From assembly GCA_949130485.1 (NCBI GenBank), contig OX422195.1, positions 1,312,566-1,376,565 of the forward strand: DNA of 64,000 bases. The letters run 5' to 3'. Below the pieces are notes generated by a model. The model searched no databases, was not told the origin of the DNA, and saw nothing but the letters and a program-made list of their open reading frames with translations. The DNA is from Agelas oroides. Its lineage: Eukaryota > Porifera > Demospongiae > Agelasida > Agelasidae. The position numbers were made by a program, and so were the translations under genes. This document shows positions 6,250 to 63,030 of this stretch, piece by piece (positions within the stretch are counted from its first letter, which is position 1; every line of letters starts with the position of its first letter).

Positions 6250-7139
6250 TCACTCTATCTTGTAGTTATCGGGGAACCTGGCACATCCACCGCCGGCAGT
6301 ATATGTATAAATAGTACCTCGCTCCGCATAAAATCTTCGAATGGCATCAGCAATGTTGCCAAAGGAACCCACATATCCCTTAGTCCGAATAATCACGGTG
6401 GAGTTCATCATGAGAAAGAACTCTTTGAACGAACGTTCTTGTACTCCTTTGAGCACACTGACTTCTGTATCAGGAGGTAAGTTGCCAAGGTGGGTATGTA
6501 CTGTTCGGGTCGCAGTGTCAATATGGATTGGTGTCTTCATTTTGCTTGCGTACTTCTTTGCCACAATGTGAACCACAAGTCTGTTGTTGAAAACAGGCAC
6601 CCAGACCATCCTGCTAGAAAGTTTAAGCTCCTTTCCAGCTTTCATGGCACAACTCACATATTGTTCTGACAATGCAACCGCAGCCTGGATGTCATCGGAT
6701 CTAGAACGTGCCTGGATCGTCATTAGAGACTTGCTTGGAACACCTAAACTTTTCAAGAGTGCATCCATTTCTTTCTGAAACTTGGATGTCATTTTGAAGA
6801 GCATATCCCAGGCGCAACAGATGCGACATTTTATCCTGTCAACACCAAGCTCATATGCTTTAGGCATAAGTCCTTGGTTACGTAGAACTGCATACGTAAA
6901 ATCATACCGATGTCCCTGTACTACTTCGACAGGGTTAGTGAATAACTTGGTAAAGTTAGTGTTCATGTACCACTGTGAGGATCTACCCGAGTCTTTAGCA
7001 GATCTCCAGCTCCCAATATCACGTACTGGCCCTCTCTTTAATCGCTGGATTGGAGTGAAGTCTGCCCAGTTGAAACTCTTTGGCTCCAAGTACTCGTCAA
7101 GGCCAGGAGGGTCTTCCCATTCAATTAAGAATGCTCTCT
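6250..7139 (-). CDS. Fucosyltransferase-like catalytic domain, terminal exon
   Basis: The last exon of the minus-strand gene: 295 codons and TGA (6250-6252). The open frame extends to 7191 but begins with TTG. A clean acceptor (pyrimidine-rich, ...TTCTTCATGCAG) ends at 7140, giving a phase-1 start. The exon opens with RAFLIEW, then a 'L.EYLEP..FNW' stretch, as seen after the GGxGNR region in NodZ/FUT-like (GT23/GT37-type) enzymes. Further on are an 'IQARSRSDD' strand, where the family has its basic 'H.RRGD'-like motif, and a C-terminal 'STVIIRTKGYVGSFGNIADA' block resembling the 'ADxxIGTxxSSFSxxA' nucleotide-sugar motif. These would bind GDP-fucose or a similar donor in the Golgi lumen. Donor and acceptor specificity cannot be read. 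Without the upstream exons this piece lacks the N-terminal motif. Confidence 0.75.
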
Positions 7140-7191
7140 CTGCATGAAGAAAAGGTGGAATACTCGGACTATTAAGCAGCAGAAGTATCAA

Positions 7192-8686
7192 ATTACAAAA
7201 GTACTATGTATTTACACAAAACTATATCTGTTAATACAAATGATTTCTGCACACCTCAAAGCCACAAAGGTTTGGAAACCTCCCAAATATTGTAAAAGGC
7301 TTGACTTAAAGCAGAAGCAAAAATAAAACGATTGCATACAAATGTCCAGAAACAAACTCTTGTGTATTCAGGTATATTATGATGGTTCTCTATAGCAACA
7401 CATATCCAGCGGAACAGAGTTGTTAGAAACTACTGAATTCAAACTGCATTAGGATTGGCCGATACAGCCACATAAAAGCCTCCCCATTCAACCACCATAT
7501 GGCACTATACAAATAACCCATAATAACAAATAATACTCGAAAGCACCACAGAAATGGGATCCTATCCACTATTCTTTCAAGCTTCTACCAAATCAACCAT
7601 GTAACGTACAAGGGATATGTATATGTAATTGCCTTTCTTTTCACAGAACATTAAGTAGTCATTCTTCATAAAAATGACTCGCTTGTGTAGCGTAGAACTT
7701 AGGCTACACATTACGAGAGTGTGACTGAACAGGAATGTATTTGATCTGCACTTATTAACTGTCCTCAAAGGTACATGAAAAGATACCAACTCACCAACTC
7801 GACTAACAAGTACAATTCAATACATATGTAATTTCCAATGGATAACTGCAACATTACAAAGCGCCTTTTGTGCAAATCTTCATCTATCTTTTTGCAAGAT
7901 GATGGAACTTCTATATACAATGGATTGGAGGTCGCTTGTCAGTACAACTCCACAGTAATTTCCATTTTGACCAATCAGGTAAAACATAGCTAGGTATAAT
8001 CTGCTATCTGATTGCAGAATCGGTGCCAGACAAGCAACCTGCAATTTACTGTATAGCCTCATTTCTAGGCTGTCCCAGAGTTAGGAGTAGAAGAATGAGG
8101 CTATAGAAACACTACATTTATTAGCATTTTCTCTTTCAGGACATCATAGTAGCACAATCTACCTTGCCATCAACATGTGAATCTCTTTAAATGTATACAG
8201 CAAATAAAAAAAAACAATGCACGGCCATTTGAGGAAATGTTCAGTTGGTACCACCAGGTTCAAGGTGCAAACCTGATTTCACCCATGAATCTTAAGCAAC
8301 TTCCTTTTTGGGTTGCCAGGAAACCCATCATCAAATATCAAGTCATGAATATCTGAAGCACAGAGTTATTCATACCGGTTTCAAGAGGTTACACTACCAG
8401 CTGACTCTGGGAGACAGCATGTCTAGCCTACTCTTACGCTGCAACCCACCACTCTCGAGATAAGTCAGCAAAAAGGGGCTACAGTGGAGTAAATCCCTAG
8501 CTGGGTTGTACACGTGTGTGCCATGGCACAGACAACAGTTAACATCTGGGGGTGGAGCTAGAAGTGCTTTACTTGATATTTAGAACTCTTCTTGCATCCC
8601 TCAACAATCGACATCTAGAAGTGTGAGCAAGGGTGTTGTGCACATACTTCTTTCAAGATGATGTTACTCCCATTAGATAAGGCCCA
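7192..8686. other. Intronic stretch without recognised features
   Basis: Searched on the minus strand for a closer 5' glycosyltransferase exon (GGxxGNR-like motif with a phase-1 donor); none was seen. Short minus-strand frames at 7577-7789 and 7880-8062 have no motif and no consistent splice sites. Nothing else is supported. Confidence 0.4.
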
Positions 8687-8760
8687 TCTCCCTGTCACCC
8701 CAGTGTAGCTGATGGGCATTGACCCGGTGCATGTGCAGTGGGTAAGCTGTATAACACCTA
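8687..8760 (+). repeat. Family A repeat fragment that seeds a minisatellite
   Basis: This matches the central part of dispersed family A, best seen at 39349-39450: CATCTCCCTGTCACCCCAGT, then TGTAGCTGATG, then a GCAGTGGGTAAGCTGTATAACACC-like end. The minisatellite that follows repeats only the last part of this fragment. Confidence 0.65.
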
Positions 8761-9987
8761 GGTCTGCCATGAAACACTTCCACATGTGCAGCGGGAGAGC
8801 TGTATAACACCTAGGTCTGCCATGAAGCACTTCCACATGTGCAGCGGGAGAGCTGTATAACACCTAGGTCTGCCATGAAACAGGGAGATACAGTTCCACA
8901 TGTGCAGCGGGAGAGCTGTATAATACCTAGGTCCGCCAAGAAACAGGGAGATACAGTTCCACATGTGCAGCGGGAGAGCTGTATAATACCTAGGTCTGCC
9001 ATGAAACAGGGAGATACAGTTCCACATGTGCAGCGGGAGAACTGTATAACACCTATAGGTCTGCCATGAAACAGGGAGATACAGTTCCACATGTGCAGCG
9101 GGAGAACTGTATAACACCTATAGGTCTGCCATGAAACAGGGAGATACAGTTCCACATGTACAGCGGGAGAACTGTATAACACCTAGGTCTGCCATGAAAC
9201 AGGGAGATACAGTTCCACATGTGCAGCGGGAGAACTGTATAACACCTATAGGTCTGCCATGAAACAGGGAGATACAGTTCCACATGTGCAGCGGGAGAAC
9301 TGTATAACACCTATAGGTCTGCCATGAAACAGGGAGATACAGTTCCACATGTGCAGCGGGAGAACTGTATAACACCTATAGGTCTGCCATGAAACAGGGA
9401 GATACAGTTCCACATGTGCAGCGGGAGAGCTGTATAATACCTAGGTCTGCCATGAAACAGGGAGATACAGTTCCACATGTGCAGCGGGAGAACTGTATAA
9501 CACCTATAGGTCTGCCATGAAACAGGGAGATACAGTTCCACATGTGCAGCGGGAGAACTGTATAACACCTATAGGTCTGCCATGAAACAGGGAGATACAG
9601 TTCCACATGTGCAGCGGGAGAGCTGTATAATACCTAGGTCTGCCATGAAACAGGGAGATACAGTTCCACATGTGCAGCGGGAGAGCTGTATAATACCTAG
9701 GTCTGCCATGAAACAGGGAGATACAGTTCCACATGTGCAGCGGGAGAACTGTATAACACCTATAGGTCTGCCATGAAACAGGGAGATACAGTTCCACATG
9801 TGCAGCGGGAGAACTGTATAACACCTAGGTCTGCCATGAAACAGGGAGATATAGTTCCACATGTGCAGCGGGAGAGCTGTATAACACCTATAGGTCTGCC
9901 ATGAAACAGGGAGATACAGTTCCACATGTGCAGCGGGAGAGCTGTATAACACCTATAGGTCTGCCATGAAACAGGGAGATACAGTTC
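8731..9987 (+). repeat. Minisatellite of about 20 units, mostly 63-65 bp
   Basis: About 20 head-to-tail units, recognisable by GTGCAGCGGGAG and CCATGAAACAGGGAGATACA. Units with CACCTATAGG are 65 bp and those with CACCTAGG are 63 bp. The two types alternate in patches. The first three units are shorter (53-56 bp) because they lack the GGGAGATACAGT part. The period is not a multiple of three, so the many overlapping open frames across it are artefacts. Confidence 0.95.
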
Positions 9988-10009
9988 AATCAATACCACC
10001 TGACATGTC

Positions 10010-10262
10010 ATTTGCTTCTTCTCACTTACAGCTTATACCAGCTACTACAAGCACCTTAGCCTACCACTTTACAGGGGTACATGGTTCACAACTTACCAGG
10101 TACCTTACAGGGAGACACAGTTCTCATTTACAACTTATACCAGCTACTACAAGCACCTTAGCCTACCAACTTTACAGGGGTACATGGTTCACAACTTACC
10201 AGGCACCTTACAGGGAGACACAGTTCTCATTTACAACTTGCCAGCTACTACAAGTACAGCTT
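10010..10262 (+). repeat. Two and a half tandem units of about 105 bp
   Basis: Units start near 10016, 10122 and 10226 with TTCTCA(C/T)TTACA and contain TACCAGCTACTACAAG and ACTTTACAGGGGTACATGG. The phrase ACAGGGAGACACAGTT links them to the adjoining minisatellite. Around 10365-10390 a short CCCACCCAAAG repetition follows. Confidence 0.8.
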
Positions 10263-11039
10263 TATCACAAGTTACATGTAAGCTCCAAGCTCCAGAAGCA
10301 CCTTATCATGTCACCAAGGTGATAAATCTCCTAGCAGAGCCAGCTAGAAACCCACTGAAACCCACCAAAGCCCACCCAAAGCCCACCCAAAGGCGCCAAA
10401 GCTCACCAAAGTCTGCCAACGCATTTCATGGTGTTCATACAGGCAGCCTTACAAATTCAGCTCAAAGCCCAGGGTGAAACCTAAAGCCCACTCAATCAAT
10501 GGCTGGGAAGCCAGTCCAGTTTCTGGGCAGGAAGCACTCAACTGCCAAGGATACTATCTCACTCCATACCACTTCCTGAGGCCTTTATTAGCATGTTGAG
10601 AGCAGCATGGGCTAAAAAGGGAGATGTTGAGACGGTGCATATGATCATGAAGGTGACATCAGGCTGCACCTCTTAATGGTGGAAACATATAGCTGAGGTC
10701 ACTAGGTTCTGCAACTTCATACTAAAATTAGTATTTACTGCACACGTTTGTAATATGTATAGTTTCAGTGGAAGCATCTTTAATGCAAGCAATGGGAGAA
10801 TACATTTCGGATCTGCCAATATATCTGCTGTACTTCAGCACAGTAGCATTGGAAAGTGAAAGTACTAACTAATGTGAATATGAAAGTGTATCCAAGGAGT
10901 GTCACTGACAGTGAAAGTGTTAACACCTCCATCTTTCATACATGGAAACTGTAGCCTGAAAATGAAAGCATTCAGTCTGACCACCAGTGCATGCACAGAA
11001 CACTAATACCAGTGTGCAGAAGAATAGACCATTTCTTTT

Positions 11040-11215
11040 TTGTGACTCAAACAATTTTCACTTTTCTATTGGAAAAAAAGGTTTTCTGCAACTTGAAATT
11101 GATTGTTGACTGAATGGTTCAGTTCTCATCAGGGCAAAGGGTGATGCATTCAGTCGAAACATCAGCTTAAGCTGGGAACAGAACCTTTTTTCCATTTATG
11201 CAGGCCAGTCACTGA
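11040..11215. repeat. Foldback repeat with TCAGTCGAAAC core, diverged copy
   Basis: The arms read AGGTTTTCTGCAACTTGAA and a matching complement near AACCTTTTTTCCATTTATGC, around a core containing TCATCAGGGCAAAG and GCATTCAGTCGAAACATC. The same layout appears at 57365-57575 and 58745-58905. Confidence 0.6.
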
Positions 11216-12542
11216 AAGATCAGTTTCTACACACCACCAAATCATGATTTATGGCATTAACTTTAAAATGTACGTGTTGCTGTATTTAGCAATGTTTAAT
11301 CTGGAACAAGCTTAGCAGTGTAAGCTACGCAGGTCCACAAACTTTCAGTGGATTCTCAGCCGGTTCCTACATAAATAGAAAGAAGGCTATCTGCTACCAC
11401 CCAAAATGTCTGCAACCGATCTCATGTTGGTAACATCAACAAAGCATTCTCTGATTTTAGATTGGCAACCGAGAACCTTCTCTCTGTTCAGGTTCACAAA
11501 ACTTGCACAATGCAAAGCACATTCAATGTGCAACAATGTATCAGGTATCCTAGCCAAACCCAGCGCATCTGGTCCTTTGGATACTCCTACTTGCGAGATT
11601 TGGAAAAGCTAACAGATAAAAGCATTTGTACAATATGCGATTTGCATACTGCAGTATACTGTGTAAAGTTATGGTCAATTAGGCAAAATTACAGTGGAAT
11701 TTTAAGCTTGAAAACTAATATACAAATTTGGATGCAGTGCACCACAAAACAAGAGCTGAGCTGGGAGAGAAGAAGTGATTGCTATCGTGTTCCTGGTAAC
11801 TGACAAGAACTTAGGCTAAAATTGCCACAGCATCAAAAGCAGGGTTCAAAATGATTAATGGATAGGCAGACTCAAGTCCAGATGTACAGGAAGGATGGCA
11901 GACCAGTAGAATTTGTTGATCACCCAACAGTCGTGATTCCAGCAAATAGGGATCTCTAATTTCCTTGTACCAGGCCAACAGTAAACATGGTTCATACCCG
12001 TTACTACTACTGTACTTTTGTCAATAGGAAAGTGAATATCAGTACATCTAAGTCCTCCTGGTTTTGATAGTACTACAAATGAAAGATTACCACTAGGCTG
12101 TATGGTGGATGGACAGGTCCCTAAAACAAGGGGGTAGTAATGATACTACATGTTGTGTTTATAATTTTCATGAAATACTGCAACCATATCAACAAATAAT
12201 AGCTACACTCAGCGTCTGTTACATAAAACGGTCAAGACTCTCTGAACTGTACACATGCTGGTAGTGGTGTACTCCACTCTAACTGTTGCCACACTGTTGC
12301 TAAGGCAGCCAAGATATGTATTTTAGTACACTATACAGGCTTTGCACTTAGTATGGCTCCAGAGATACCCCACTCATTTCCTGCCAGTTTAATTAGTTAG
12401 AGCATCATAGAACCAACACTGTAGTTAATCATCACAGAACCAACACTGTACTGTGTATATGGTGTATAGTACATCCACATGATCTATGATAATGTATTAT
12501 GACATTTATGAGGAGGGAGTTGAGTCATATTCAACTGTTGTC

Positions 12543-12680
12543 TAGCCTCGTTTCTAGGCCTTCCCTGGCTCCAGTTTTTGATCGCCTTCAGTATGCAAAA
12601 ACAGGGGGGGGGGGAGGGGGGGGAAGGAAGGCCTGGTGAATCTTACCATATGGTCTGTGGCACAGACGTCACACATCCTC
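12543..12680. mobile_element. Truncated copy of the TAGCCTCG foldback family
   Basis: One arm only: TAGCCTCGTTTCTAGGCCTT, then GATCGCCTTCAGTATGCAAA, a G-rich run (12604-12624) and GAAGGCCTGGTGA. It corresponds to the left arm of the complete copy at 61403-61787. Confidence 0.65.
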
Positions 12681-13659
12681 ACTCCTTCTTACATAGCCAA
12701 GCAACAGTAAAGACCAATCTAGTGCTCTGTACCAGCTACAAAGATGGGGCACACGCCAGCAGAGAGCCACACATCCAGCATGGGAAGCAAATTTGAGCTT
12801 GAAGACACAGCTCCCAAGAGTTACCAAGTCACACGACTTAGGCTGTTCAGAACTGTCAGATAAACATCTTGAATGAATTACATTGCATTGGTGTTCTTTT
12901 TGCATGCAAAACACTCTCATTTCATGGATCATCAACTTGACAGCAGAGCACTAATGCCATCCCTTAGGGAGGTGCTTTGTTTCCTCTTTCTGGCTGTGAG
13001 TCAAAGCTGTTTGTACATATCTGTGGGTTGAAGACAGCTTTGTTTCAGTGCCCCTCTGCAATTAGATCAACTGTCGAGTTTGACACTTCACTAGTCAGTG
13101 GGGCTTTCATCACAGCTCAGCCTACACTCCCACTTCTTCAAATATGAAAATTAGCCTTTTATACTTGGTTCTCATGGAGCCAGGCATCAAACATTGTACG
13201 GGCAGTTAGGCAGTATATGTGAAAACAGTGCTTAACCATGCGTAGCACTTCTAGTTTCACTTTGATATCAGTGCTTAGCGAGATCAAAGAGGAAGACTAT
13301 TTTATGTAGTGTTGTGTTAACATGAGATCAAAGGGGTTGGTGTTAATTGGACTTTATATCTATGCTAACATGACGCAATATCCATGCCAAAGTAAAATGA
13401 CATGCAACATATTCAGGAGTAGGAAAATACATGTAACGCACGCATTCAGTGAAATGGACAACTATGAATCTCATTGAAAACTGAATGATAACCAAGTGTG
13501 CAAGTACTAGGACCAATTAATCCAGGAACCTCTACTGTACGATGACCAAGGATGCTTGGAGTTAGAAGTGTGTGTTGTTAGTGTGTTTATCGTGCAGCGG
13601 ACAGATTCACAATATCAACTTATGACTTCATTACTAAAGTAATCACTCCACCTACAACA

Positions 13660-14262
13660 AACGGATGTAAGCGAACATCTGGAAATATACCTGGTGCCCG
13701 GAACAAAGATATGTAATACGTCATACATACGTCTGGTGTCCCTGAGTTGTAAGGGAAAATCTTGGAATATGCCCAAATATGTAAATGAACATCTCGCGTC
13801 ATATACCCAGAACAATATAAGTAGAAATCTCCCGTGTAATATTTAATGAACATCTCTCGTCATATCCAAGTAGAAATCTTGGAAAATGCCCGGAATAAAC
13901 ATGTAAATAAACATCTTGCGTCACATACCTGGAATAAAAAAATTTGTGAATGAAAATCTCTTGTCATATACCCGGAACAAACATGCAAATGAAAATCTCC
14001 CGGAATAAACATGTATGAACATCTCTTGTCATATCCAAGTAGAAATCTTGGAAAATGCCCGGAATAAACACGTAAATAAACATCTTGCGTCACTGGAAAG
14101 TAAACGAAAATCTCTTGTCATATACCCGGAACAAACATGTAAACGGACATCTCGCGTCATATACCCGGAACAAACATGTAAACGGACATCTCGCGTCATA
14201 TACCCGGAACAAACATGCAAACGGACATCTCGTGTCATATACCCGGAACAAACATGTAAAGG
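13660..14262 (+). repeat. 39-bp minisatellite and diverged relatives
   Basis: Four near-identical 39-bp units (about 14105-14262), each with GACATCTCGCGTCATATACC and CGGAACAAACATG(T/C)AAA, preceded by many decayed units back to about 13.66 kb. The period is a multiple of three, so open frames cross it on both strands; these are by-products and not genes. Confidence 0.85.
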
Positions 14263-14264: not shown

Positions 14265-15544
14265 CATCCGGATATGTGCCTGGTGCCCGAACAGTAATAC
14301 GTTATACATTTGGTGCCCAGAACAAAAGAACTATAAGTAAAAATCTTGGAACATGACCGGAATAAAACATGTAAATAAACATCTTCACGTCATATACCTG
14401 GTATCCAGAACATGCAACATTTAATGAACATCTCTTGTCATATCCGAACAGTAAGTAGAAAATTTGGAACATGCCCAGAACAAAATGAACAGCTGGGCAT
14501 ATGCCTGCTACCTAGAACTACGCTAGCCTCATTCCCAGGCTCCTCTGCTCCGGAACACGAACTTGAACTTGTGCATGCGGAGAGAGCCTGGTAATTTTTC
14601 TCACGTGAGCACCGCCAAAGGTAGAACGGAGGTAGAATGACCTTAATTGCACGTGGGCGTGTCTGAAGACTCAGAACAAGGAAACGAGAGAAGGTAGCGG
14701 GCACTTACTACACAGATCTAGCTACCGGGGAGTGAATATCATACACACCGAATGTTAAACGCATGGTTGGTTGAACAATGCGCAAAACATTGCCTTTCTG
14801 TTTTAGTCCTATTTCGATTACATCATGCTTACGTAGAAATGTTCCGGGAGAGCCTGGGAACGAGGCTAGAACTACGCAAGGGATTAAGTGAACATTCAGA
14901 TGTAAAACTAATACATTAGGAATGAGGAACATGACTGGTTCAGCAGATGTAAGCGAACATTGAACACAACTGAAATATGGAGATCAACCGCTATCCCAGT
15001 ATAGAACAAACATACCAGACGTATTAACTTTTGTATTAGATTTCCGTTGAACTTTCACTTCACCCACTGACGTGGGCAGAAAGGTAAGGAAGAACATGTG
15101 ATACTGGGCAGTTTCGTGAGTGGATTATGTCATCCCTTGTAACAATATACATACCACTGCGAAGAAGGAATGGTGTTTTATGCACCAGTGTTTCTCCTGT
15201 GTGTTGCGAAGGGGAACACGGGGACTTTGATACAGAAGGCCTCACAATAGGCAATCAACAGGAAATAACAGTGTTACAATTTCCTGTAGCACACATGGCC
15301 TCCTAAAGTCTTGAGAGGAAGATGAGCTAGACCAGGTCAGTTCATTACAGGAGGAAACTGAGGAAAGAACTGAGGTACAGAACACCTCTACATAACCAAG
15401 AGGAAATAATGGTGTTATACGTCCTGCAGGAGGGCTTCCACACCTGGTACTAATGTGCCATTGATTGCACCCTTCTCTTCCTGGGGTTCTGACTGGAAGG
15501 AAAAAGGCCCTTTGTCACAATAAGAGTTCAAGTTCTACACTCGA
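14265..15544 (+). repeat. 1.28-kb tandem duplication, first copy
   Basis: This segment is repeated directly as 15545-16823, with only scattered substitutions and at least one single-base length difference (AATAAAACATG versus AATAAACATG). It contains one complete 345-bp foldback element. It encodes no recognisable protein. Confidence 0.95.
14524..14868. mobile_element. TAGCCTCG foldback element with 9-bp target duplication
   Basis: Terminal inverted repeats begin TAGCCTCATTCCCAGGCTC and end in the complementary AGAGCCTGGGAACGAGGCTA. The element is flanked on both sides by the perfect 9-bp direct repeat GAACTACGC (14515-14523 and 14869-14877). It has no coding capacity. A 9-bp target duplication with long inverted repeats is typical of Mutator-like (MULE) non-autonomous elements. 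Confidence 0.85.
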
Positions 15545-16823
15545 CATCCGGATATGTGCCTGGTGCCCGAACAGTAATACGTTATACATTTGGTGCCCAG
15601 AACAAAAGAACTATAAGTAAAAATCTTGGAACATGACCGGAATAAACATGTAAATAAACATCTTCACGTCATATACCTGGTATCCAGAACATGCAACATT
15701 TAATGAACATCTCTTGTCATATCCGAACAGTAAGTAGAAAATTTGGAACATGCCCAGAACAAAATGAACAGCTGGGCATATGCCTGCTACCTAGAACTAC
15801 GCTAGCCTCATTCCCAGGCTCCTCTGCTCCGGAACACGAACTTGAACTTGTGCATGCGGAGAGAGCCTGGTATTTTTTCTCACATGAGCACCGCCAAAGG
15901 TAGAACGGAGGTAGAATGACCTTAATTGCACGTGGGCGTGTCCGAAGACTCAGAACAAGGAAACGAGAGAAGGTAGCGGGCACTTACTACACAGATCTAG
16001 CTACCGGGGAGTGAATATCATACACACCGAATGTTAAACGCATGGTTGGTTGAACAATGCGCAAAACATTGCCTTTCTGTTTTAGTCCTATTTCGATTAC
16101 ATCATGCTTACGTAGAAATGTTCCGGGAGAGCCTGGGAACGAGGCTAGAACTACGCAAGGGATTAAGTGAACATTCAGATGTAAAACTAATACATTAGGA
16201 ATGAGGAACATGACTGGTTCAGCAGATGTAAGCAAACATTGAACACAACTGAAATATGGAGATCAACCGCTATCCCAGTATAGAACAAACATACCAGACG
16301 TATTAACTTTTGTATTAGATTTCCGTTGAACTTTCACTTCACCCACTGACGTGGGTAGAAAGGTAAGGAAGAACATGTGATACTGGGCAGTTTTGTGAGT
16401 GGATTATGTCATCCCTTGTAACAATATACATACCACTGCGAAGAAGGAATAGTGTTTTATGCACCAGTGTTTCTCCTGTGTGTTGCGAAGGGGAACACGG
16501 GGACTTTGATACAGAAGGCCTCACAATAGGCAATCAACAGGAAATAACAGTGTTACAATTTCCTGTAGCACGCATGGCCTCCTAAAGTCTTGAGAGGAAG
16601 ATGAGCTAGACCAGGTCAGTTCATTACAGGAGGAAACTGAGGTAAGAACTTTGGTACAGAACACCTCTACATAACCAAGAGGAAATAATGGTGTTATACG
16701 TCCTGCAGGAGGGCTTCCACACCTGGTACTTATGTGCCATTGATTGCACCCTTCTCTTCCTGGGGTTCTGACTGGAAGGAAAAAGGCTCTTTGTCACAAT
16801 AAGAGTTCAAGTTCTACACTCGA
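15545..16823 (+). repeat. 1.28-kb tandem duplication, second copy
   Basis: Direct copy of 14265-15544. The right boundary is the shared phrase CTACACTCGA (ending at 16823), after which the sequences part. The foldback element and its flanks are included, so the duplication happened after that insertion. Confidence 0.95.
15803..16147. mobile_element. TAGCCTCG foldback element, duplicated copy
   Basis: Same 345-bp element as at 14524-14868, carried along by the 1.28-kb duplication. Its GAACTACGC flanks are intact on both sides. Confidence 0.85.
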
Positions 16824-47009: not shown

Positions 47010-47090
47010 TATGCCTTTCTTCCTTTCTAGGAAGACACTATACTAGTACTTACGTCAATGTGTGTATAACATATTCTTTCTCTTGCAGGA
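47010..47090 (-). repeat. Left part of the 47/54-kb repeated block
   Basis: CTTCCTTTCTAGGAAGACAC, ACTATACTAGTACTTACGTC and GTATAACATATTCTTTCTCT recur at 54236-54310 and 54507-54580. Each is followed by the 51-bp unit, expanded only here. Confidence 0.8.
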
Positions 47091-47450
47091 AAGGCCCCTT
47101 ATGAGCTAACACTCTCGTCCCCATGCCATCACACATGTGGAAAGGTCCCTTATGAGCTAACACTCTCGTCCCCATGCCATCACACATGTGGAAAGGTCCC
47201 TTATGAGCTAACACTCTCGTCCCCATGCCATCACACATGTGGAAAGGTCCCTTATGAGCTAACACTCTCGTCCCCATGCCATCACACATGTGGAAAGGTC
47301 CCTTATGAGCTAACACTCTCGTCCCCATGCCATCACACATGTGGAAAGGTCCCTTATGAGCTAACACTCTCGTCCCCATGCCATCACACATGTGGAAAGG
47401 CCCCTTATGAGCTAACACTCTCGTCCCCATGCCATCACACATGTGGAAAG
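47091..47450 (-). repeat. 51-bp minisatellite, seven units
   Basis: Exact 51-bp units beginning GAAAGG(T/C)CCCTTATGAGCT, starting at 47091 with steps of 51. The minus-strand frame stays open (a 17-residue repeat containing CDGMGTRVLAHKGPFHM) because 51 is a multiple of three. I treat it as non-coding. Confidence 0.95.
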
Positions 47451-48706
47451 GCCCCTCTACTACGTAGCTTGTTCCAATGCATTCTGTTTCCTTGACTCAA
47501 ATTGTATTGGCTAATACTGTCGTCTCTGTGTCTCCATATTGTGTACATTGTTCATTCCTTTGTTCACAGAAAGACCCTTGTATTGGTACGTGTGTCCATG
47601 TGCGTACTATGATGTATTCCTTATTTGGCAGAAAAATCCACTGCAGTACGTAGTTACTATATTTTTCCATATTTTCTTCCTCTCGGAAAAGCCCCCTGTA
47701 TATATGTAACCCTGTCTCCGTATTGCAAGGCATATTCTGCAAACAGCATCCAACAGGTGCTGCAACAGCGCCAAATGATTGTCACCGTGATTAGTCTCGT
47801 TCCCAGACTCTCAGTACTGTACTGGGAGTCGCACTGGGGGTCTGGGAATGAGACTAGAGCATGTTTGATTACACTGCCATCACAAAGGAGGGTCTCAAGT
47901 GGGCCAGCTCTTACTTACAAGTTCACACGACTTCCTGAACAAAGTCCACGGTTCACGGATCAGTACTAGTCATTACAGGGTACGGTACGTAATACAATTC
48001 AGGAAGTGGAAACAGACTTTGACAATAGGGACATACGTAGATCCATTGAGTATTTGAAATATATATCCTTAAGTTTACTGGACTCTGCATTGTGCGTAAT
48101 TACAGATACAGTGCTTCTCACCCGAGATGGTGTTAGTACTTGTGTCAATGTGTGTACTACGTATTCTTTCTCAGGAAAGCCACCTGTATTAGCTACCACT
48201 CTTGTCACTACACAATGATGTCTTCATGAGAAAGGCCTCTCTACCAGTTCCACTAGCTAACACTCTTGTCACTACACAATGATGTCTTCATGAGAAAGGC
48301 CTCTCTACCATTTCCACTAGCTACCACTCTTGTCCCTAAGCAATACGATTTCTTCACTCCGGCAAGAAAGGCCCCCATACTAGCTTCCTTCTATGTGTCA
48401 CGTTTCCTGCACCACAGCAGAATCCCCTGTATTAGTACCGTTACCCCTCTATTGTGTATTCCGCAGAAACAAAACTGTAGTACTCTCATCTCCATATTAT
48501 GTACATCCTGCATTCCCCTTCTTGCAGAAAGGTGCTTGTATTAATACTCTGTATATTTGTATTACATGTTCCCACTCTGCAGCTCATAAAAGGCTGTCAC
48601 TATATTAGACCTTATGTGTTTTCTCCCTGCAAAAAATCCCTGCATTACTACTCTTGTAGCAAGAGATTACTGCTTGTAGCAAAGGTCTGCATGAAAGATC
48701 ATAGGC
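47451..48706. other. Decayed repeat field of GAAAGGCCC-type phrases
   Basis: Degenerate units with CTAACACTCTTGTC, CACTACACAATGATGTCTTC and AGAAAGGC(C/T)CCT recur through 48.68 kb, including a direct repeat at 48230-48320. A short foldback lies at 47792-47856 (TAGTCTCGTTCCCAGAC and GTCTGGGAATGAGACTA). Confidence 0.6.
47792..47856. mobile_element. 65-bp foldback, TAGTCTCG variant
   Basis: TAGTCTCGTTCCCAGACTCTC pairs with a complementary right arm ending GGAATGAGACTA. No clear target duplication. Confidence 0.6.
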
Positions 48707-48710: not shown

Positions 48711-48842
48711 CTAGTAGTACAGCCATGAAGAAGACGGTAGTGATGCCTCGAATCCTGCCCGCTATCCCTCCACCAGTCGGGTAGTCTCCTTTGCCTGTGG
48801 AGTAAACAAGGTAGGCAGGAGGACGCTTGCCAGTGATAATCT
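48711..48842 (-). CDS. Fucosyltransferase-like N-motif exon
   Basis: 132 bases, phase 1 at both ends, 43 full codons. The acceptor (CACACCACACACAG|AG) is preceded on the coding strand by a long CCCT repeat, a very strong pyrimidine tract. The donor is CTACTAG|GTGAGC. The peptide includes PPAYLVYS, a glycine-rich loop GGGIAGRIRGI and FFMAVLL. In NodZ/FUT-like enzymes the equivalent loop (GGLGNR-type) begins the Rossmann-like domain and is followed by 'A(L/V)LTxRxFLIDW'. Joined to the terminal exon this gives AVLL-E-RAFLIEW, an exact family fit. The loop has AGR instead of GNR, so catalytic status is uncertain. Confidence 0.8.
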
Positions 48843-55911: not shown

Positions 55912-55959
55912 TACATACAAACATACAAACGTGAACTGACAGCGCTGCACAATTATCAG

Positions 55960-56745
55960 CCTCGCGTTAAGGTACTCGGCAATTATAAAGACAAATGAAC
56001 TAAAACCATCTAAAATTGGATTATTATTGCTTGTTTCCATTCTATAATTATAGAGACAAATGAACTAAAATCCTTTAAAATTAGATGATTATTGTCGGTT
56101 CCATCCTATAGAGAGACTAATGAACTAAAATTGGATTATTATTGTTTGTTTTCATTCTATAATTATAGAGACAAATGAACTAAAATCCTTTAAAATTAGA
56201 TGATTATTGTTGGTTCCATCCTATACAGAGACAAATGAACTAAAACATTTAAAATTTGATTATTGTCTGTTCTCATCCCACATAGAGACAAATGAACTAA
56301 CCATCTAATATAACCGTTACCTAGGCAACATATAATCATATCTCTCTTCTACAGAGATGTTGCCTAGGTAACAGGTTATATATCCCTCCCTGGGGTGTGG
56401 TCTTGCACATTGGTGTCAAGGTACGCTAGACACAAATGTGTAAAACGACCACCCCCCAGGGAGGGATATAACTATTACAAATTGGATTATTATTGTTTGT
56501 TTCCATTCTATAATTATAGAGAGAAATGAACTAAAATCCTTTAAAATTAGATGATTATTGTCGGTTCCATCCTATATAGAGACAAATGAACTAAAGTTGG
56601 ATTATTATTGCTTGTTTTCATTCTATAATTATAGAGACAAATGAACTAAAATCCTTTAAAATTAGTGTCTGTTCTCATTCTGTATAATTATAAAGACAAA
56701 TGAACTAAAATCATCCAAAAATGGGCATATCATAATCATCCATTT
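55960..56745 (+). repeat. GACAAATGAACTAAAAT tandem array
   Basis: Around eight units of roughly 60-95 bp with AGAGACAAATGAACTAAAAT, CCTTTAAAATTAGATGATTA and TTGT(T/C)GGTTCCATCCTAT, interrupted by the double hairpin at 56308-56471. Related decayed units lie at 53.81-53.95 kb. Confidence 0.85.
56308..56471. repeat. Double hairpin repeat, copy 2
   Basis: Matches 54768-54925. The right hairpin is intact and the left hairpin's first arm is shortened. It sits inside the tandem array above, so it probably inserted into it. Confidence 0.8.
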
Positions 56746-56749
56746 TTGG

Positions 56750-57360
56750 AGCCGGGCCATACCTCAACATGGGGGTGAGTTTGCATAACATCTATACCTG
56801 CCTTTTTTTCAGGGAGATGTGGTTCATTGGTCGCCCATGTACACCATGAATCCCTTTGAGAAACTATATAGATCTCTCAAGCAGGAGAAAATTCAGCAGC
56901 TCCTAGTCTTGCACAAACAGTGTTCAGCTAAAGCGAGGACAGACTGGTACATAACGCATACCGTATGGCGCCAAATTTTCAAGGGTCTAAATTTTTAGCG
57001 AGTAGCAGTTTTTTTGAAGATTTTCATTAAAATAATTGCTATATAAACCACGCACACGCTGCGCACATAATGTAGTATGGGCGTGGCATACAAGCCAAGT
57101 TCTATCTAACACACCCTGTTACACCAATGTCCGCTCAAGCACGACTTACAGCACAGAAAAGTGAGGAGAGCCTGGTACATAATCCATATGGTTGGTCAAA
57201 CAACACACACACACACACACAAAATATTGCCTTTTCGTCTGGAAAGTTTTGGCCATTTGTGGGCTCATGTGAGATTTTTGCCAGGCACTCTCCCACTTCT
57301 ACTGTAAGCATTAAAAACTCGGGCAGTGACCTGAGAAGTGCTCAGTTGTGTATCAGGCAA
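56750..57360. other. Family A fragment, MITE end and weak frame
   Basis: A family A fragment (56750-56850) is followed by a lone CCGTATGGCGCCAAATTTTC end (56962-56981). The frame at 57127-57504 runs into a foldback repeat and is not called. Confidence 0.5.
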
Positions 57361-57364
57361 AGGT

Positions 57365-57575
57365 CAACTTCAGAAATGAAGAGAAGGTTATCGGTTACCA
57401 ACTTCAGTTCGGAAAATAACTTGCCGACGTTTCGACTGAATGCTCCAGTCGTCATCAGGGCGAAAGTGAAGAAGTGCGAACAAACGCTAGCCATGCACTA
57501 CTGAGCTCAAGTTGGTAACAGATAACCTTCTCTTCATTTGTGCAGAAGCCAACTGAGAAGCCACTGAAAATCAAC
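57365..57575. repeat. Foldback repeat with TTCGACTGAATGC core, copy 2
   Basis: The arm GAAGAGAAGGTTATCGGTTA and its complement TAACAGATAACCTTCTCTTC enclose GCCGACGTTTCGACTGAATG. About 200 bp. Confidence 0.8.
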
Positions 57576-58149
57576 TTCAGAATTCAGAGGCAACTAAACT
57601 GATATAAACATCCTACGTACCTTTCTAAGTGGGGTAAACCCTGGTATAAAAATACAATTAATGGAGAGTTTGGTAAGTTATACTCCCTTCTTACTACTCT
57701 CAGTCCAACCCACAGCTGGAAAAATTGAAATTTAGTGTAATTTTCCTAATTACAAACCTCTCAGTGATGTAAAATGACATCACAAGACAAACAAACAGAG
57801 AGGGAGGGAGGGTGGGAGATGGTTGCTATACTCACTAACTCCCTAACAGTTGCCCAATATATACCCCCTCACACCACAAAGGTTACCATAGGGATGACAT
57901 CGTGCATAACAGGCCACACTAGTGGGTGACATTCTATATGTATAAGATGACTCCACAGGGTTCTACTAAGAGGGGAAGGGGGAGGGCATTAGGGCTGATG
58001 AGGCCTGGAATTGGCTGAAATACGTCCTGCACAGTAAGTGACTTTGCACAGCATCTAAGGCCTGCCTTTTTCATATGGTTCAATGATTGTTTGTGCATTT
58101 GTATGTAAGCAACTAATGCTGTATGGGGCCTGGAAATGAGACTAGTGTT

Positions 58150-58555
58150 GCCCCTCTTCCTTCCCTCTCTTTCTCCCTGCCTCCCTTTCCTCCTGCCTTA
58201 ACTTCCCCCCATTCTCTCTTCCCCCCTACCTCCCTTTCCCCCTGCCTTAACTTCCCCCCATTCTCTCTTACCCCTGGCCTTCCCTTAACTTCCCCACCCA
58301 CCTCTCTTTCCCCCTGGCCTTCCCTTAACTTCCCCACCCACCTCTCTTTCCCCCTGGCCTTCCCTTACCTTCCCCCCTTCCTTTCTTCCTTTCTTTCTTC
58401 CTGCCCTTCCCTTACCTCCACTCCCCCTCAATTCCTACTCCTCCCTTACCTTTACCCTTTCCCCCTGCCCTCCTCTCTCCTTTGTCCCTTCCTCCCATTC
58501 CCTCTGCCTCTTCTGATTTCCTCCCCCACCCCCATCCCCAAACATCTTTACCACA
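58150..58555 (+). repeat. Pyrimidine-rich tract with about 41-bp tandem units
   Basis: Three units of CTCTCTTTCCCCCTGGCCTT and CCCTTAACTTCCCCACCCAC, within about 400 bases of almost pure C/T. Open frames across it are artefacts. Confidence 0.9.
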
Positions 58556-58744
58556 CAATGTTTGTTCTTTTTTGACAATCTGTACAAGTATGCTGAGTGT
58601 AGCCATGCGATAATCATCATCGTCACGTGATAACAAGTGGTAACGATTAATGTGTACACCAAAACTCTGATGGCAGGCAAAGATGTCACATATGTGAAGT
58701 GATAACCATGAGAAACTTAAACAGAACCCACACAGTTCGAGATG

Positions 58745-58905
58745 AGGAAAACATGAAGAGGAAGGTTGTCAGTTACCAACCTGAGTTTGCCGACATTTCG
58801 AATGGAGCATTCAGTCGAAATGTCGGCAAGTTATTTTCCGAGCTCAAGTTGGTAACAGACAACATTCCTCTTCATTTATCCAGGAGTCAACTGAGAAGCC
58901 GCTGA
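58745..58905. repeat. Foldback repeat with TTCGACTGAATGC core, copy 3
   Basis: Outer arms GAAGAGGAAGGTTGTCAGTT and AACAGACAACATTCCTCTTC. The inner arms TTGCCGACATTTCGAATG and CATTCAGTCGAAATGTCGGCAA form a second, tighter hairpin. Confidence 0.8.
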
Positions 58906-59009
58906 GAACCTGGAGCTCCAAGTTGGATTCACACTCAAGTCTAATTACAAGATGTGTGTAACCAAGCAATGTTTAAAACACACGCCCTCTCAAAAATGTT
59001 CCAATACCC

Positions 59010-59389
59010 TAGCCTCACCCTCAAGCCTTCCCTTATCCAGTTTGTGATTGCTTACAGTGTGCAAAAACAGAGGGAGAAAGCCTGGTCCATTTTATGACAT
59101 TGAGTAGATAGGAGGGGAAGAGGGGTCTTTGACCAAAAGAATGTATTCCACACAAATGTTCTTCATTCTGAACAGGCAACAAATTTTCCCCATCACAAAA
59201 ATTCTGAACTCCACCACATGGACAGACATACACTACAAGAAATGACCTCGAGCACTTCTTCCCCTCTGTCTACGTAGGTAGCCATTGACGTCATTCACAT
59301 GATAAAATGGACCAGCCCTCCCCCCTCTGTTTTTGCATACTGCAAGTTATCAAAAATTGAACAGTTAGGAAGGCCTGGGAATGAGGCTA
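59010..59389. mobile_element. TAGCCTCG foldback element, 380-bp copy
   Basis: The left arm (TAGCCTCACCCTCAAGCC, TGCAAAAACAGAGGGAGAAA) and right arm (CCCCCCTCTGTTTTTGCATA, GGCCTGGGAATGAGGCTA) are inverted. The flanks CCAATACCC and ACCATATCC no longer match, so this is an older copy. Confidence 0.8.
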
Positions 59390-59408
59390 ACCATATCCAT
59401 GTACGTAG

Positions 59409-59692
59409 TCCCCCATCAAAAGAATGAGCTTGAGGGTTTATCTTGTAGCTTCTGCCACAAGCACTGGAGTTTCCAAAGTTCGCGAAGCAAAAAACGTATA
59501 GCTCCTGGTTAGAAACAAAGAACGCATGCGCGAAATGCATTCTTTCGATGGGGGATCCCTCCCCCCCTCTGTCTACCTAGGTAGACACTGACGTCATTTC
59601 ACATGATAAAATAGACCAGGCCTTCCCCCTCTGTTTTCGCATACTGCAAGCAATCAAAAACTGGACGGTGGGAAAGCCTGGGAGCGAGGCTA
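59409..59692. mobile_element. TAGCCTCG foldback element, left arm lost
   Basis: Matches the inner part and right arm of 61403-61787 (CCCCATCAAAAGAATGAGCT, TTCTTTCGATGGGGGATCC, CTACCTAGGTAGACACTGAC). It ends at 59692, about 10 bases from the donor of the 59812-59705 exon. Confidence 0.75.
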
Positions 59693-59704
59693 TTATGTGC
59701 CTAC

Positions 59705-59812
59705 CTTTGTGGAGTCTCTCGTACTCAACTAGCCAGTGTCCACACATGTATTTGGAGTCCTCGGGGTACATGGGAGGATTGAGGGGGTTAATAGGGTACA
59801 TGTCCAATCCAC
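59705..59812 (-). CDS. Linker exon before the glycosyltransferase domain
   Basis: 108 bases, phase 1 at both ends. The acceptor (CTCTTTTCCCAG|GTGG) follows the kilobase pyrimidine tract; the donor is CACAAAG|GTAGGC. The peptide is proline- and tyrosine-rich (MYPINPLNPPMYPEDSKYM) followed by CGHWLVEYERLHK. In related fucosyltransferase-fold proteins a 'W(L)..Y..LH..I' stretch precedes the 'LVY' strand. The joined product LHK-E-IITGKRPPAYLVYS fits that pattern, so this exon most likely splices straight to 48842. Confidence 0.75.
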
Positions 59813-59815
59813 CTG

Positions 59816-60815
59816 GGAAAAGAGAGGAAGGAAGGAGAGGTAAAGTAGGATGGGAAAGGGGGAGGAAGAGAGAGGGGGGAGGGGAGGGAGGGGGAGGGGA
59901 GGGAGGGGGAAAGAGAAGGGAGTGGGAGATAAAGGAGGGGGAGGGAAAGGGCAATGGAGAGGGAGGAAGAAGAGAGGGAGAGGGAAGGAAGGGGAGAGAG
60001 GGAAGAGAAAGGAGGGGGGAGGGGGAGGAAGGGGGAGAGGGAGGAGGGGAGGAGAGGGAGGAAGGGGGAGGGAGGGAGGAGAGAAAGGGGAGAGAGGAAA
60101 GAGAAGGGAGGAAGAGAAAGAAGGAAGGGAGAGGGGAAGAGGAGGGGGAAAGAAAGGGGAGGGAGGGAGGGAGGGAGGGAGGGGAAGGAGGGGGAGGAGA
60201 GGGAGGGGAGAGAGGGAAGGGAAGGAAAGGGGAGGGGATGGGAGAGATAGAAGGAAGGGAAAGGGGAGGGAGGGGGAGGAAAGAGAGGGGGAGGAGGGGG
60301 AGGAAGGGGGAGGGGGAGGAAAGGGAGGGGGAGGAGGGGGAGGAAGGGGGAGGGCGGGAGGGAGGGAGGAGAGAAAGGGGAGAGAGGGAAGAGAGGGGAG
60401 GGGGAGGGAGGGAGGGCAGAGAGGAAGGGGAGAGAAAAGGGAGGGGGAGGGGAAGGGAGGGAGGGGAAGAGAGGGCAGAGAGGAAGGGGAGAGAGAAGGG
60501 AAGGGGAGGGGAAGGGAGGGAGGGGAGGTAGGGAGGGGAGGAGGGAGGGGAGGAGGGGGAGGAGAGGGAGGAGGGGAGGGAGGAGGAGGGAAAGGGGAGA
60601 GAGGGATGAGAAGGGGGGAAAGGGAGGGGAGGGGAGGAGGGGAGGGGAAAGGAGGGGAGGAGGAGGAGGAGAGGGAGGGGAGGAGAGGAGAGGAGGGAGG
60701 AAAGGGAGGAGAGAGAGGGGATGGGGGAGAGGAAGGGAGGGAGGAGAGGAAGGGGAGAGAAGGGAGGGGGAAGGGAAGGGAGAAAGAGAAGGAAGGGGAG
60801 AGAAAGGAAGGGGAG
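59816..60815 (+). repeat. About 1-kb polypurine tract (GGGGA/GGGAA)
   Basis: Almost pure G/A on the plus strand, with only a handful of interrupting pyrimidines. It fills most of the intron between the TSP1 exon and the 59812 exon and is the pyrimidine tract of that intron on the coding strand. The long Gly/Arg/Glu- and Pro/Ser-rich open frames through it are artefacts. Confidence 0.95.
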
Positions 60816-60817
60816 CT

Positions 60818-60998
60818 ACTTCTTTCTCTTTCTCCCTCCCTCTTTTCTTCCTCCTCCTCTCCCTCCTCCCTCTCCCTTTACCATTTTCCTCCCGTCTCCT
60901 CCCCCTTCCTTCTCTTTCTCCCTTCCTCTCCCCTTTCCTCCCCTCCCACTTCCTTCTCTTTCTCCCTTCTCCTCCCCTCCCCTCTCTTTCTCTCTTCC
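60818..60998 (+). repeat. Pyrimidine tract opposed to the polypurine tract
   Basis: About 180 bases of almost pure C/T (CTTTCTCCCTCCC, CCTCCTCCCTCTCC). Next to the preceding purine tract it makes a large potential hairpin or triplex-forming region. Confidence 0.9.
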
Positions 60999-61101
60999 CG
61001 GGATGAATGAACAGAAGAACAAGGAATGAAGAAAGAGAGACGGAAGGAGTGTGACACAAACTGACAGAAAGAAAGCTTCTGCCATAATCTCTGAACGATA
61101 C

Positions 61102-61287
61102 CTGGTCCTCCATATTTGTTGGGGTCAAACTTGCAGGGAACGTCACAGATGCTCTCCTCGATGCGGTTAAGAGGACACTTGTCCGAGGCCTGACAAACAA
61201 AGTCATAGATGGCCTTGCGGTAGCGGCGGCCTTGTCCACACGCCTTGCTGCATGGAGACCATTCTGACCACACAAAGGGAGGGCACA
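61102..61287 (-). CDS. Thrombospondin type-1 (TSP1) domain exon
   Basis: With the acceptor AAGACAG|TGTGCC the exon is 186 bases with phase 1 at both ends, the symmetric class typical of shuffled animal extracellular modules. The donor is GGACCAG|GTATCG. The peptide begins CPPFVWSEWSPCSKACGQG and continues with RRYRK, DFVC, DKCP, SICDVPC: seven cysteines and the TSP1 'W..WS.C...CG.G...R' signature. WSEW is a WxxW C-mannosylation motif. The O-fucosylation motif CxxS/TC is absent because the residue before the second Cys is Ala. An alternative acceptor 10 bases upstream (start 61297, phase 0) would add CKTV. It would act outside the cell or in the Golgi lumen. Confidence 0.8.
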
Positions 61288-61402
61288 CTGTCTTGCACTG
61301 TGCGTGTGTGTGTGTGCGTGTGTGTGTGTGCGTTGCAGATGATTGAAGTGTGTGTTATTGTCTTACATCACGACAAGGGAGCCTGGGAATGCATGTTATA
61401 CT

Positions 61403-61787
61403 TAGCCTCGTTCCCAGGTCTTCCCACCGTCCAGTTTTGATCGCTTGCAGTATGCAAAAACGGAGGGGGAAGGCCTGGTATATTTTATCACGTGAATGAC
61501 GTCAGTGTCTACCTAGGTAGACAGAGGGGGGGGGGTCCCCCATCGAAAGAACAAGCTTGAGGCCTTATCTTGTAGTTTCTGCCCCAAACGCTGGAGTTTC
61601 GAACTTTCGTGAAGTGAAAAACGCGTGCAAAAAATGTGTTCTTTCGATGGGGGACCCCTCCCCCCTCTGTCTACCTAGGTAGACACTGACGTCATTCACA
61701 TGATAAAATATACCAGGCCTTCCCCCTTGTTTTTGCATACTCCAAGTGATCAAAACTGGACGGTGGGAAGGCCTGGGAACGAGGCTA
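61403..61787. mobile_element. TAGCCTCG foldback element, complete 385-bp copy
   Basis: Long inverted arms. TAGCCTCGTTCCCAGGTCTT, GCAGTATGCAAAAACGGAGG, GACGTCAGTGTCTACCTAGG and CCCCCATCGAAAGAAC on the left are matched in reverse on the right, which ends GGCCTGGGAACGAGGCTA. Each arm contains a GTCTACCTAGGTAGAC palindrome. It lies in the intron 5' of the TSP1 exon. Confidence 0.9.
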
Positions 61788-61836
61788 GGGTACCCTTTCA
61801 CTGCAGTGACATCTGCCATCACACCGTGACACTCAC

Positions 61837-61888
61837 CATCTGTCCACTTCTGATAGCCCTGGCAACCTCCTCTGCACTCATCCTCATC
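61837..61888 (-). CDS. Mini-exon with CxxxC motif before TSP1
   Basis: 52 bases (phase 0 in, phase 1 out). The acceptor is excellent (CCCTCCCTCTTCCCAG|GATGAG) and the donor is CAGATG|GTGAGT. It encodes DEDECRGGCQGYQKWTD, which joins in phase to the TSP1 exon. Alternatively the 35-base intron upstream is not removed and the region reads on in another frame (...MSAEEVARAIRSGQM), which would need the 61297 acceptor. I favour this version because it makes the TSP1 exon symmetric and keeps paired cysteines. Confidence 0.5.
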
Positions 61889-61923
61889 CTGGGAAGAGGG
61901 AGGGTTGGGGGATCAGTTTCTAC

Positions 61924-62025
61924 AGTCTTGGGAACAATGGCCCTGCGAGCATTCAGTGGAGCTGGAGCTTGAATGATGCGAGGGACAGGCTTGGCCACAA
62001 GCGGAGAGCCAGGGTTCTTTATCAC
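61924..62025 (-). CDS. Proline-rich linker exon
   Basis: 102 bases, phase 0, beginning VIKNPGSPLVAKP. The acceptor is a tandem NAGNAG (TTCCAGCAG|GTG), so an extra Gln is optional. The donor AAGACT|GTAGAA is weak and the following intron would be only 35 bases. If it is not spliced the exon continues to 61837 in the same frame. It is part of the flexible stem. Confidence 0.5.
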
Positions 62026-62111
62026 CTGCTGGAAGAACACACAGTGCAAAAACTCAGGGTGGAGGTCTGGAAAAGAGGCTAAATCTCTGTTCTCCTTCTC
62101 CCTCTCCTTAC

Positions 62112-62210
62112 CTGTTGCATTGTCTGAGCCTGGTTTATACCATTGTTCAACATCAACGCTCTTGGTTGCTGAGCAGGCACACCCCCCAGTGGTGAGGACA
62201 AACCGGGGAC
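62112..62210 (-). CDS. Stem exon, tandem duplicate of the preceding exon's end
   Basis: 99 bases, 33 codons, phase 0 at both ends. The acceptor is CCGATCAG|GTC and the donor CAACAG|GTAAGG. The peptide (VPGLSSPLGGVPAQQP ... NQAQTMQQ) is nearly identical to the last 33 residues of the upstream exon, and the intron behind each is also alike. It arose by tandem duplication of about 270 bp. Low complexity, Gln/Pro-rich, no domain. Confidence 0.7.
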
Positions 62211-62403
62211 CTGATCGGAATGGTTGAGATCAACAGTAAAAGAATAGCACAAAATGCGTCAACGTGTCACTACATCTGGTGTAGCCTCATTCCTTCCATA
62301 CCTATACACTCAGATTCTCGCAGTGACTGCTGCAAGATAAAATCTGGGCGGAGGTCTGGAAAAGAGGAGACATCTTGTGTGTTTTCCTCCTCCCTCTCCT
62401 TAC

Positions 62404-63030
62404 CTGTTGCATTGTCTGGGCCTGGTTTACATTCCTGTTCAGTGTCAACACTCCTGGCTGCTGAGCGGGCACACCCCCCAGTGGTGAGGACAAACCGGGG
62501 ACCTGACCTGGAATGTTTTTGGCAATAACACCCTGTAAAGTGCCTGGGGTATGGGCAAGGAATTGGGCACCAGGAAGGGCCGCTGTTCCTGGCAACTGCT
62601 GGTTTTGCTCTGAGTCCAAAGGATGCTGGATGTTCGAAGAAAGAGTTTGGGAATGCACTGCTTCATTCAAGGGGTTAGGTTGGGGTGGGCCAGCTTGGTC
62701 TCCAGGCACAGGTACAGCTGGGTCATCCCCTCCATCCTGCAGGTTGTTGTGTTGATCTGGTCTGTCCTGAGCATCTCCATTGTACTGACTTTCATCCCTT
62801 CTGTCCTGGACCTCTTCCTCCTCTCTCTCTGGCCCACGTCCCTCTTCCGATCTTTCTTGTCTGTTGTCCTGATAATTCGCATCAAGCTCATCATTGTCTC
62901 GTATTTTGCCAGCGGCCTCCTGCTCCTCGGCAAGACGGCTCTTCATTTCATTCCCTTCCTTGATACTGTGGGCCAACGTTCTGGACGAGTGAGGGTCAAC
63001 GTGTAGACGTGGGGCAACGTTCTGGTCTCC
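62404..63030 (-). CDS. Long disordered stem exon
   Basis: 627 bases, exactly 209 codons, phase 0 at both ends. The acceptor ATAAATGTGCAG|GGAG has a branch-point-like CTAATGAC about 25 bases before it. The donor is CAACAG|GTAAGG. The first third is charged (GRGPEREEEEVQDRRDE), and the rest is Gln/Pro/Asn-rich (PAVPVPGDQAGPPQPNP, LPGTAALPGAQ). There is no cysteine and no domain. This resembles the stem of a Golgi type II enzyme or a secreted linker. The ORF upstream of the acceptor continues by chance. A signal or membrane anchor is not visible. Confidence 0.7.

What the first reader, a model, noticed from the sequence alone, without database searches (positions are those of the whole stretch)
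6250..63030. A TSP1 module spliced onto a fucosyltransferase-fold enzyme, spread over nearly the whole window
Eight minus-strand exons with consistent GT/AG sites and phases spell a Gln/Pro/Glu stem, a TSP1 domain, and a NodZ/FUT-like catalytic domain. Seen: motifs WSEWSPCSKACGQG, GGGIAGRIRGI, RAFLIEW and a C-terminal GSFGNIADA block. Known: TSP1 domains are substrates of O-fucosyl- and C-mannosyltransferases. A fucosyltransferase-like enzyme that itself carries a TSP1 domain is an unusual architecture. Inference: the TSP1 part may anchor the enzyme to matrix or substrate.
Basis: partly seen in the sequence, partly recalled or inferred. Interest (0 to 1): 0.85.

Follow-up and report, generated by a model that had tools for sequence, protein, structure and literature searches.

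The report
Animal fucosyltransferase-like enzyme with TSP1 domain
This stretch of what is probably a sponge genome appears to hold one long gene for a Golgi-type, membrane-anchored sugar-transferring enzyme (a fucosyltransferase relative) with a thrombospondin module built in between its stem and its catalytic part, an architecture I did not find described.

The parts
62404..63030 (-). stem exon 1 (Gln/Pro/Glu-rich, acidic), phase 0 to 0
   Evidence: AG/GT sites and open frame; codon usage above 500 of 500 intron pieces
62112..62210 (-). stem exon 2, 99 nt, a tandem copy of the 3' end of exon 1 (77% identical over a 39-residue match that includes a few flanking codons), phase 0 to 0
   Evidence: codon usage not distinctive alone
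61837..62025 (-). stem exon 3 (start 62025 or 62028, both in frame), phase 0 to 0
   Evidence: codon usage not distinctive alone
61102..61297 (-). TSP1 exon, 196 nt, phase 0 in and phase 1 out; C-mannosylation motif WSEW present, POFUT2 site CXX[S/T]C absent (CSKAC)
   Evidence: PF00090 30.8 bits; genome search 34.3 bits; phases
59705..59812 (-). first exon of the fucosyltransferase-like unit (linker, ...YERLHKE), phase 1 to 1
   Evidence: conserved in the C21 paralog, E 9.7e-5
48711..48842 (-). second catalytic exon with the Gly-rich loop GGGIAGRIRG (equivalent of GLGNR in AtFUT1), phase 1 to 1
   Evidence: paralog exon E 2.4e-9; alignment with AtFUT1/FUT4
6250..7139 (-). last exon, 295 complete codons plus stop: most of the catalytic domain, with IQARSRSDD and GSFG
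   Evidence: paralog E 2.4e-29; hhalign to 12 ORFs

Best explanation
One gene encodes a type II membrane protein of about 815 residues: short cytosolic tail, signal anchor (exon just outside the window), long acidic Gln/Pro stem, one TSP1 domain, and a C-terminal GT-B domain of the FUT8/NodZ/plant-FUT1/POFUT superfamily. It most likely works in the Golgi lumen as a GDP-fucose-dependent inverting transferase. The TSP1 module at the end of the stem would hold an acceptor glycoprotein, a polysaccharide or the enzyme complex next to the active site. Shown: exon structure in the DNA, TSP1 domain, homology of the catalytic domain to an in-genome family with the fucosyltransferase fold, and retention of the three motif residues compared here. 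Inferred: splicing as drawn, Golgi location, fucose as donor sugar, activity, and the role of TSP1 as a binding module.
Against: No transcript. Direct Pfam search finds no GT family; direct PDB sequence search finds TSP1-bearing chains only, and unrelated ones with the two-row profile. The window's own last exon did not fold (pLDDT 30.7); the good model is of a relative whose row is 21% identical to the window exon. Of 39 to 41 columns invariant in the 12 ORFs the window has the same residue in only 14 or 15 (AtFUT1 15 to 17), so much of the family's own motif set, such as HIRTG, is changed. Two introns are 10.9 and 41.6 kb. The signal-anchor scan returned rows at a similar rate on the opposite strand (2 rows from one frame), so that exon is only suggestive. 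The nearest paralog shows no TSP1, so the join of TSP1 has no second instance here.
Confidence: 0.65

Rival explanations
1. Two neighbouring genes: a stem-TSP1 membrane protein (64464-61102) and a separate fucosyltransferase-like gene (59812-6250) that starts with its own undetected first exon.
For: The C21 paralog has anchor plus catalytic exons without a significant TSP1 match in about 36 kb. No RNA. A phase match of two unlinked exons happens by chance about one time in three (reasoning).
Against: No signal-anchor start with a phase 1 donor in 59813-61101 (other phases were not scanned there). The TSP1 exon would need a terminal exon of its own; reading through its donor gives mostly low-complexity sequence up to a stop at 60878. 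The acceptor of the first catalytic exon is phase 1, as is the TSP1 donor.
Confidence: 0.12
2. The architecture is right but the enzyme is not a fucosyltransferase: it uses another GDP or nucleotide sugar, or is an inactive relative kept for binding.
For: Strong divergence: no Pfam GT hit, 21% identity to the modelled family member, only 14 or 15 of 39 to 41 family-invariant residues kept. HIRTG reads QARSR. The sister copy has lost the Arg of the Gly-rich loop and reads SPFS for [ST]-x-F-G.
Against: The window copy keeps the loop Arg, the Arg of IQ-x-R and the Phe of S-x-F, and matches the family-invariant columns about as often as the active plant enzyme AtFUT1 does (15 to 17). The solved structures nearest in fold to the family are fucosyltransferases.
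Confidence: 0.3
3. TSP1 is not a binding module but a substrate: the enzyme modifies its own TSP1 domain.
For: TSP1 domains are known acceptors of O-fucose and C-mannose (PMC11990869 passages); WSEW and WSPC fit the C-mannosylation motif given there.
Against: The CXX[S/T]C site is CSKAC here, and the other C-x-x-x-C pairs of the exon (CKTVC, CDVPC) do not fit either (sequence). In 15 of 17 other TSP1 motifs read from three regions of this genome the position is S or T (a subset picked through the hits).
Confidence: 0.07
4. The TSP1 exon is a recent insertion or decoy exon in one assembly and is not used.
For: No second species was available; its codon usage is not distinctive (0.084 of intron pieces as high).
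Against: The domain is intact (8 Cys, WSEW, Pfam over cut-off) with usable splice sites, and the phases need it.
Confidence: 0.06

Closest known systems
GT37 xyloglucan fucosyltransferases (Arabidopsis FUT1, PDB 5koe/5kwk; Pfam XG_FTase PF03254)
   Different: The window domain itself does not hit PF03254; hhalign directly to FUT1/FUT4 is weak (27%, score 34.9 against a shuffle maximum of 30.1). TSP1 and long stem; animal.
FUT8 (GT23) and NodZ alpha-1,6-fucosyltransferases
   Different: No Pfam hit to a FUT8 or NodZ model and no SH3 domain listed.
POFUT2 (GT68)
   Different: POFUT2 meets TSP1 as a separate substrate. Here TSP1 is part of the chain and lacks the acceptor residue.
C21 paralog in the same genome (L006 5377 to L002 2391)
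   Same: Three catalytic exons with identical intron places and phases, 34% identity, likely own signal-anchor exon.
   Different: No significant TSP1 match in about 36 kb upstream and no long stem in the model; two motifs degenerate.

Membership tests
TSP1 domain (PF00090) | score over Pfam gathering cut-off | tested here: met
   30.8 bits, cut-off 21.6; 34.3 bits in the genome search
TSP1 domain (PF00090) | Trp motif and at least six Cys | tested here: met
   WSEWSPC and 8 Cys in the exon
POFUT2 substrate TSP1 | C-x-x-[S/T]-C acceptor site | tested here: not met
   CSKAC in the window; consensus from PMC11990869 passages
GT37 / XG_FTase (PF03254) | window domain over Pfam gathering cut-off | tested here: not met
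   no PF03254 hit listed up to E 10; in the genome search only C10 rings. So not filed as GT37.
GT-B fucosyltransferase superfamily (GT23/37/65/68) | homology to a family with that fold | tested here: met
GT-B fucosyltransferase superfamily (GT23/37/65/68) | own predicted structure of the window domain | tested here: inconclusive
   last exon alone, 2-row alignment: pLDDT 30.7
GT-B fucosyltransferase superfamily (GT23/37/65/68) | Arg of the Gly-rich loop, Arg of H/Q-x-R, Phe of S-x-F | tested here: met
   aligned in three MAFFT modes; that these are the defining residues is partly recalled
GT-B fucosyltransferase superfamily (GT23/37/65/68) | transfer of fucose from GDP-fucose | not testable with these tools
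   needs an enzyme assay
Golgi type II glycosyltransferase | short cytosolic tail, signal anchor, luminal stem | tested here: inconclusive
   candidate anchor exon 64464-64261 in phase; the scan gave comparable rows on the opposite strand

The most novel reading that the evidence does not exclude
The TSP1 module is a substrate-recruiting arm: it steers a fucosyltransferase to TSP1-bearing or sulfated matrix partners. It arose by insertion of a TSP1 exon into a fucosyltransferase gene, followed by loss of its own fucose acceptor so that it binds without being consumed. The enzyme would be a substrate-tethered matrix fucosyltransferase of a kind not described so far.
Probability: 0.15. Interest if true: 0.7.

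Novelty: new variant of a known kind. Interest (0 to 1): 0.45.

Why it matters
POFUT2 reads TSP1 domains as separate substrates. An enzyme of the same superfamily that carries a TSP1 domain with the fucose site removed would show how a substrate fold was turned into a targeting module, and would add a matrix-binding type of fucosyltransferase to an animal lineage that branched early. The genome also holds 12 uninterrupted ORFs of the same family, so fucosylation in this animal may be richer than vertebrate gene names suggest.

Tried and rejected
Pfam scan of the joined protein and of the paralog: no GT family; the hits under cut-off, such as Gag_p19 on the paralog (14.6 bits, cut-off 22) and CDC45 on the stem, were taken as chance. 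PHROGs: nothing better than E 0.37. PDB sequence search: TSP1-bearing chains only; with the two-row profile only neurofibromin chains and a designed protein, E 0.13 or worse. Viral contigs and genome contigs: no relative confirmed; phages: nothing below E 1. So no second instance of the architecture was reachable. AlphaFold of the last-exon pair failed. Self-fucosylation was considered and is disfavoured (CSKAC). TSP1 hits on C15 lie about 20 kb from the relative L022 but on the opposite strand, so I did not read them as a second fusion. Literature, seen as listings (titles and starts of abstracts): searches found no paper; 30, 31 and 74 listed 6, 6 and 5; 86 and 87 showed 12 of 36 and 12 of 57; no listing names a TSP1-fucosyltransferase chain. 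Passages only were read in PMC6214176, PMC10481521, PMC5604996, PMC11990869, PMC11500582 and PMC3522684.
Full report
Place. The window is contig C13, bases 1312566-1376565, of a 259-Mb assembly in 141 contigs. Contig C141 (22,436 bases) carries a COX1 read with TGA as Trp and split by a stretch that holds a LAGLIDADG-like frame. From memory of such genes I take the organism for a demosponge; no call names it.

Exons. With corrected boundaries the model reads: signal-anchor exon 64464-64261 (outside the window), stem exons 63030-62404, 62210-62112 and 62025-61837, TSP1 exon 61297-61102, and catalytic exons 59812-59705, 48842-48711 and 7139-6250; 814 residues plus the stop, or 815 plus the stop if the third stem exon starts at 62028. 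The joins up to the TSP1 exon are phase 0; the TSP1 exon leaves at phase 1; the later joins are phase 1. Stem exon 2 is a tandem copy of the end of exon 1. The anchor exon was the only phase 0 row in about 30 kb upstream, but the opposite strand gave two rows from one frame in the same scan, and phase 2 one row. Codon usage separates stem exon 1 and the last exon from intron pieces (0 of 500 as high); the other six exons lie between 0.054 and 0.148, and in three of the eight a wrong frame scored higher.

One gene or two. In the C21 paralog the three catalytic exons recur, with introns at the same places and in the same phase 1, behind a likely signal-anchor exon whose phase 0 donor fits a phase 0 acceptor of the first catalytic exon (read by eye from the sequence). 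No significant TSP1 match was found in the about 36 kb upstream that was read (with the window TSP1 as query; chance matches from E 3.7), and none of the 36 matches listed by the genome-wide TSP1 search lies on C21. In the window, anchor and stem donors are phase 0 and the first catalytic acceptor is phase 1; of the exons found, only the TSP1 exon bridges them. No other signal-anchor start with a phase 1 donor was found between TSP1 and the catalytic exons. Hence one gene is the better reading, without RNA proof.

Catalytic domain. Direct Pfam and PDB sequence searches do not recognise it. A genome search with XG_FTase found one place, on C10, over the cut-off. Its ORF found 15 matches in the genome, from which I took 12 ORFs (L014-L025). 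L026 (with stops), L027 (a second match in the L025 frame) and L028 (E 0.67) were left out. hhalign of the window-plus-paralog profile A2 to the profile of the 12: prob 98.2, E 5.7e-14 for this one comparison, score 106.7, 300 columns. Controls: best of 100 column shuffles 25.9, reversed 18.3 and 16.9. The 12-ORF profile against AtFUT1/FUT4: prob 81.5, score 48.9, 78 columns. A2 against FUT1/FUT4 is weak, 34.9 against a shuffle maximum of 30.1. Of 8 ORFs scanned in Pfam, one passes the XG_FTase cut-off, two hit it below the cut-off and five do not hit it.

Structure. The window exon with its paralog only: pLDDT 30.7, useless. L019 with 14 rows, including the two last exons: pLDDT 83.6, pTM 0.86. 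Foldseek: ranks 1-47 are FUT8, AtFUT1, NodZ and POFUT1. VIA-align: AtFUT1 23.0, FUT8 19.3, NodZ 18.0, POFUT2 14.9, POFUT1 14.2; the next row, a family 9 glycosyltransferase, is 9.5. In three MAFFT modes the loop Arg, the Arg of IQ-x-R and the Phe of S-x-F are kept in the window; in the paralog the loop Arg is lost and the second Arg aligns in one mode of three. Of the 39 to 41 columns invariant in the 12 ORFs, the window has the family residue in 14 or 15, the paralog in 13 to 16, and AtFUT1 in 15 to 17. The window domain is thus about as far from this family, at these columns, as the plant enzyme. A tree puts window and paralog together with 100/99, on long branches that the program flags as a risk.

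TSP1. The exon has 8 Cys, WSEW (C-mannosylation motif) and CSKAC, where POFUT2 needs S or T before the second Cys (passages of PMC11990869). Of 27 rows printed by my pattern scan of other TSP1 regions, 8 repeat others and 2 are not TSP1; of the remaining 17, from C2, C15 and C23, 15 have S or T. The C22 region gave no row. These regions were picked through the BLAST hits and are a part of the 36 places.

Reading. A type II Golgi-like fucosyltransferase relative with a TSP1 module at the end of its stem. The binding role of TSP1, the donor sugar and activity are inferred. Searches listed no paper that names such a chain (86 and 87 showed 12 of 36 and 12 of 57); the library lacks most subscription journals, and no annotated animal genomes could be searched, so the architecture may exist in databases under an automatic name.

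Noticed in passing
3338-4483 (+): An uninterrupted protein kinase frame (Pkinase 188.2 bits) just past the 3' end of the gene on the other strand.
   Followed up: partly
G000 C3:6425998-6472682 and C21:7014193-7019120: Clusters of uninterrupted fucosyltransferase-like ORFs, five and three copies, some nearly identical.
   Followed up: partly
L006 5377 to L002 2391 (contig C21): Paralog with the same catalytic exons but the loop Arg lost and SPFS at the last motif; perhaps an inactive relative.
   Followed up: partly
62112-62210 and the 3' end of 62404-63030: Tandem duplication of a stem exon; the adjoining intron stretches also look alike by eye.
   Followed up: partly
14379-15514 and 15658-16793: Tandem copy of about 1.3 kb: the same frames recur 1279 bases apart.
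   Followed up: no
8615-9952 and 47050-47496: Minisatellite-like arrays inside the 41.6-kb intron, open in several frames.
   Followed up: no
L035 (G000 C141:13800-16700) and C107:16176-16808: Mitochondrial COX1 interrupted by a stretch with a LAGLIDADG-like frame; a second COX1 match without inside stops on C107 suggests a bacterial contig in the assembly.
   Followed up: no
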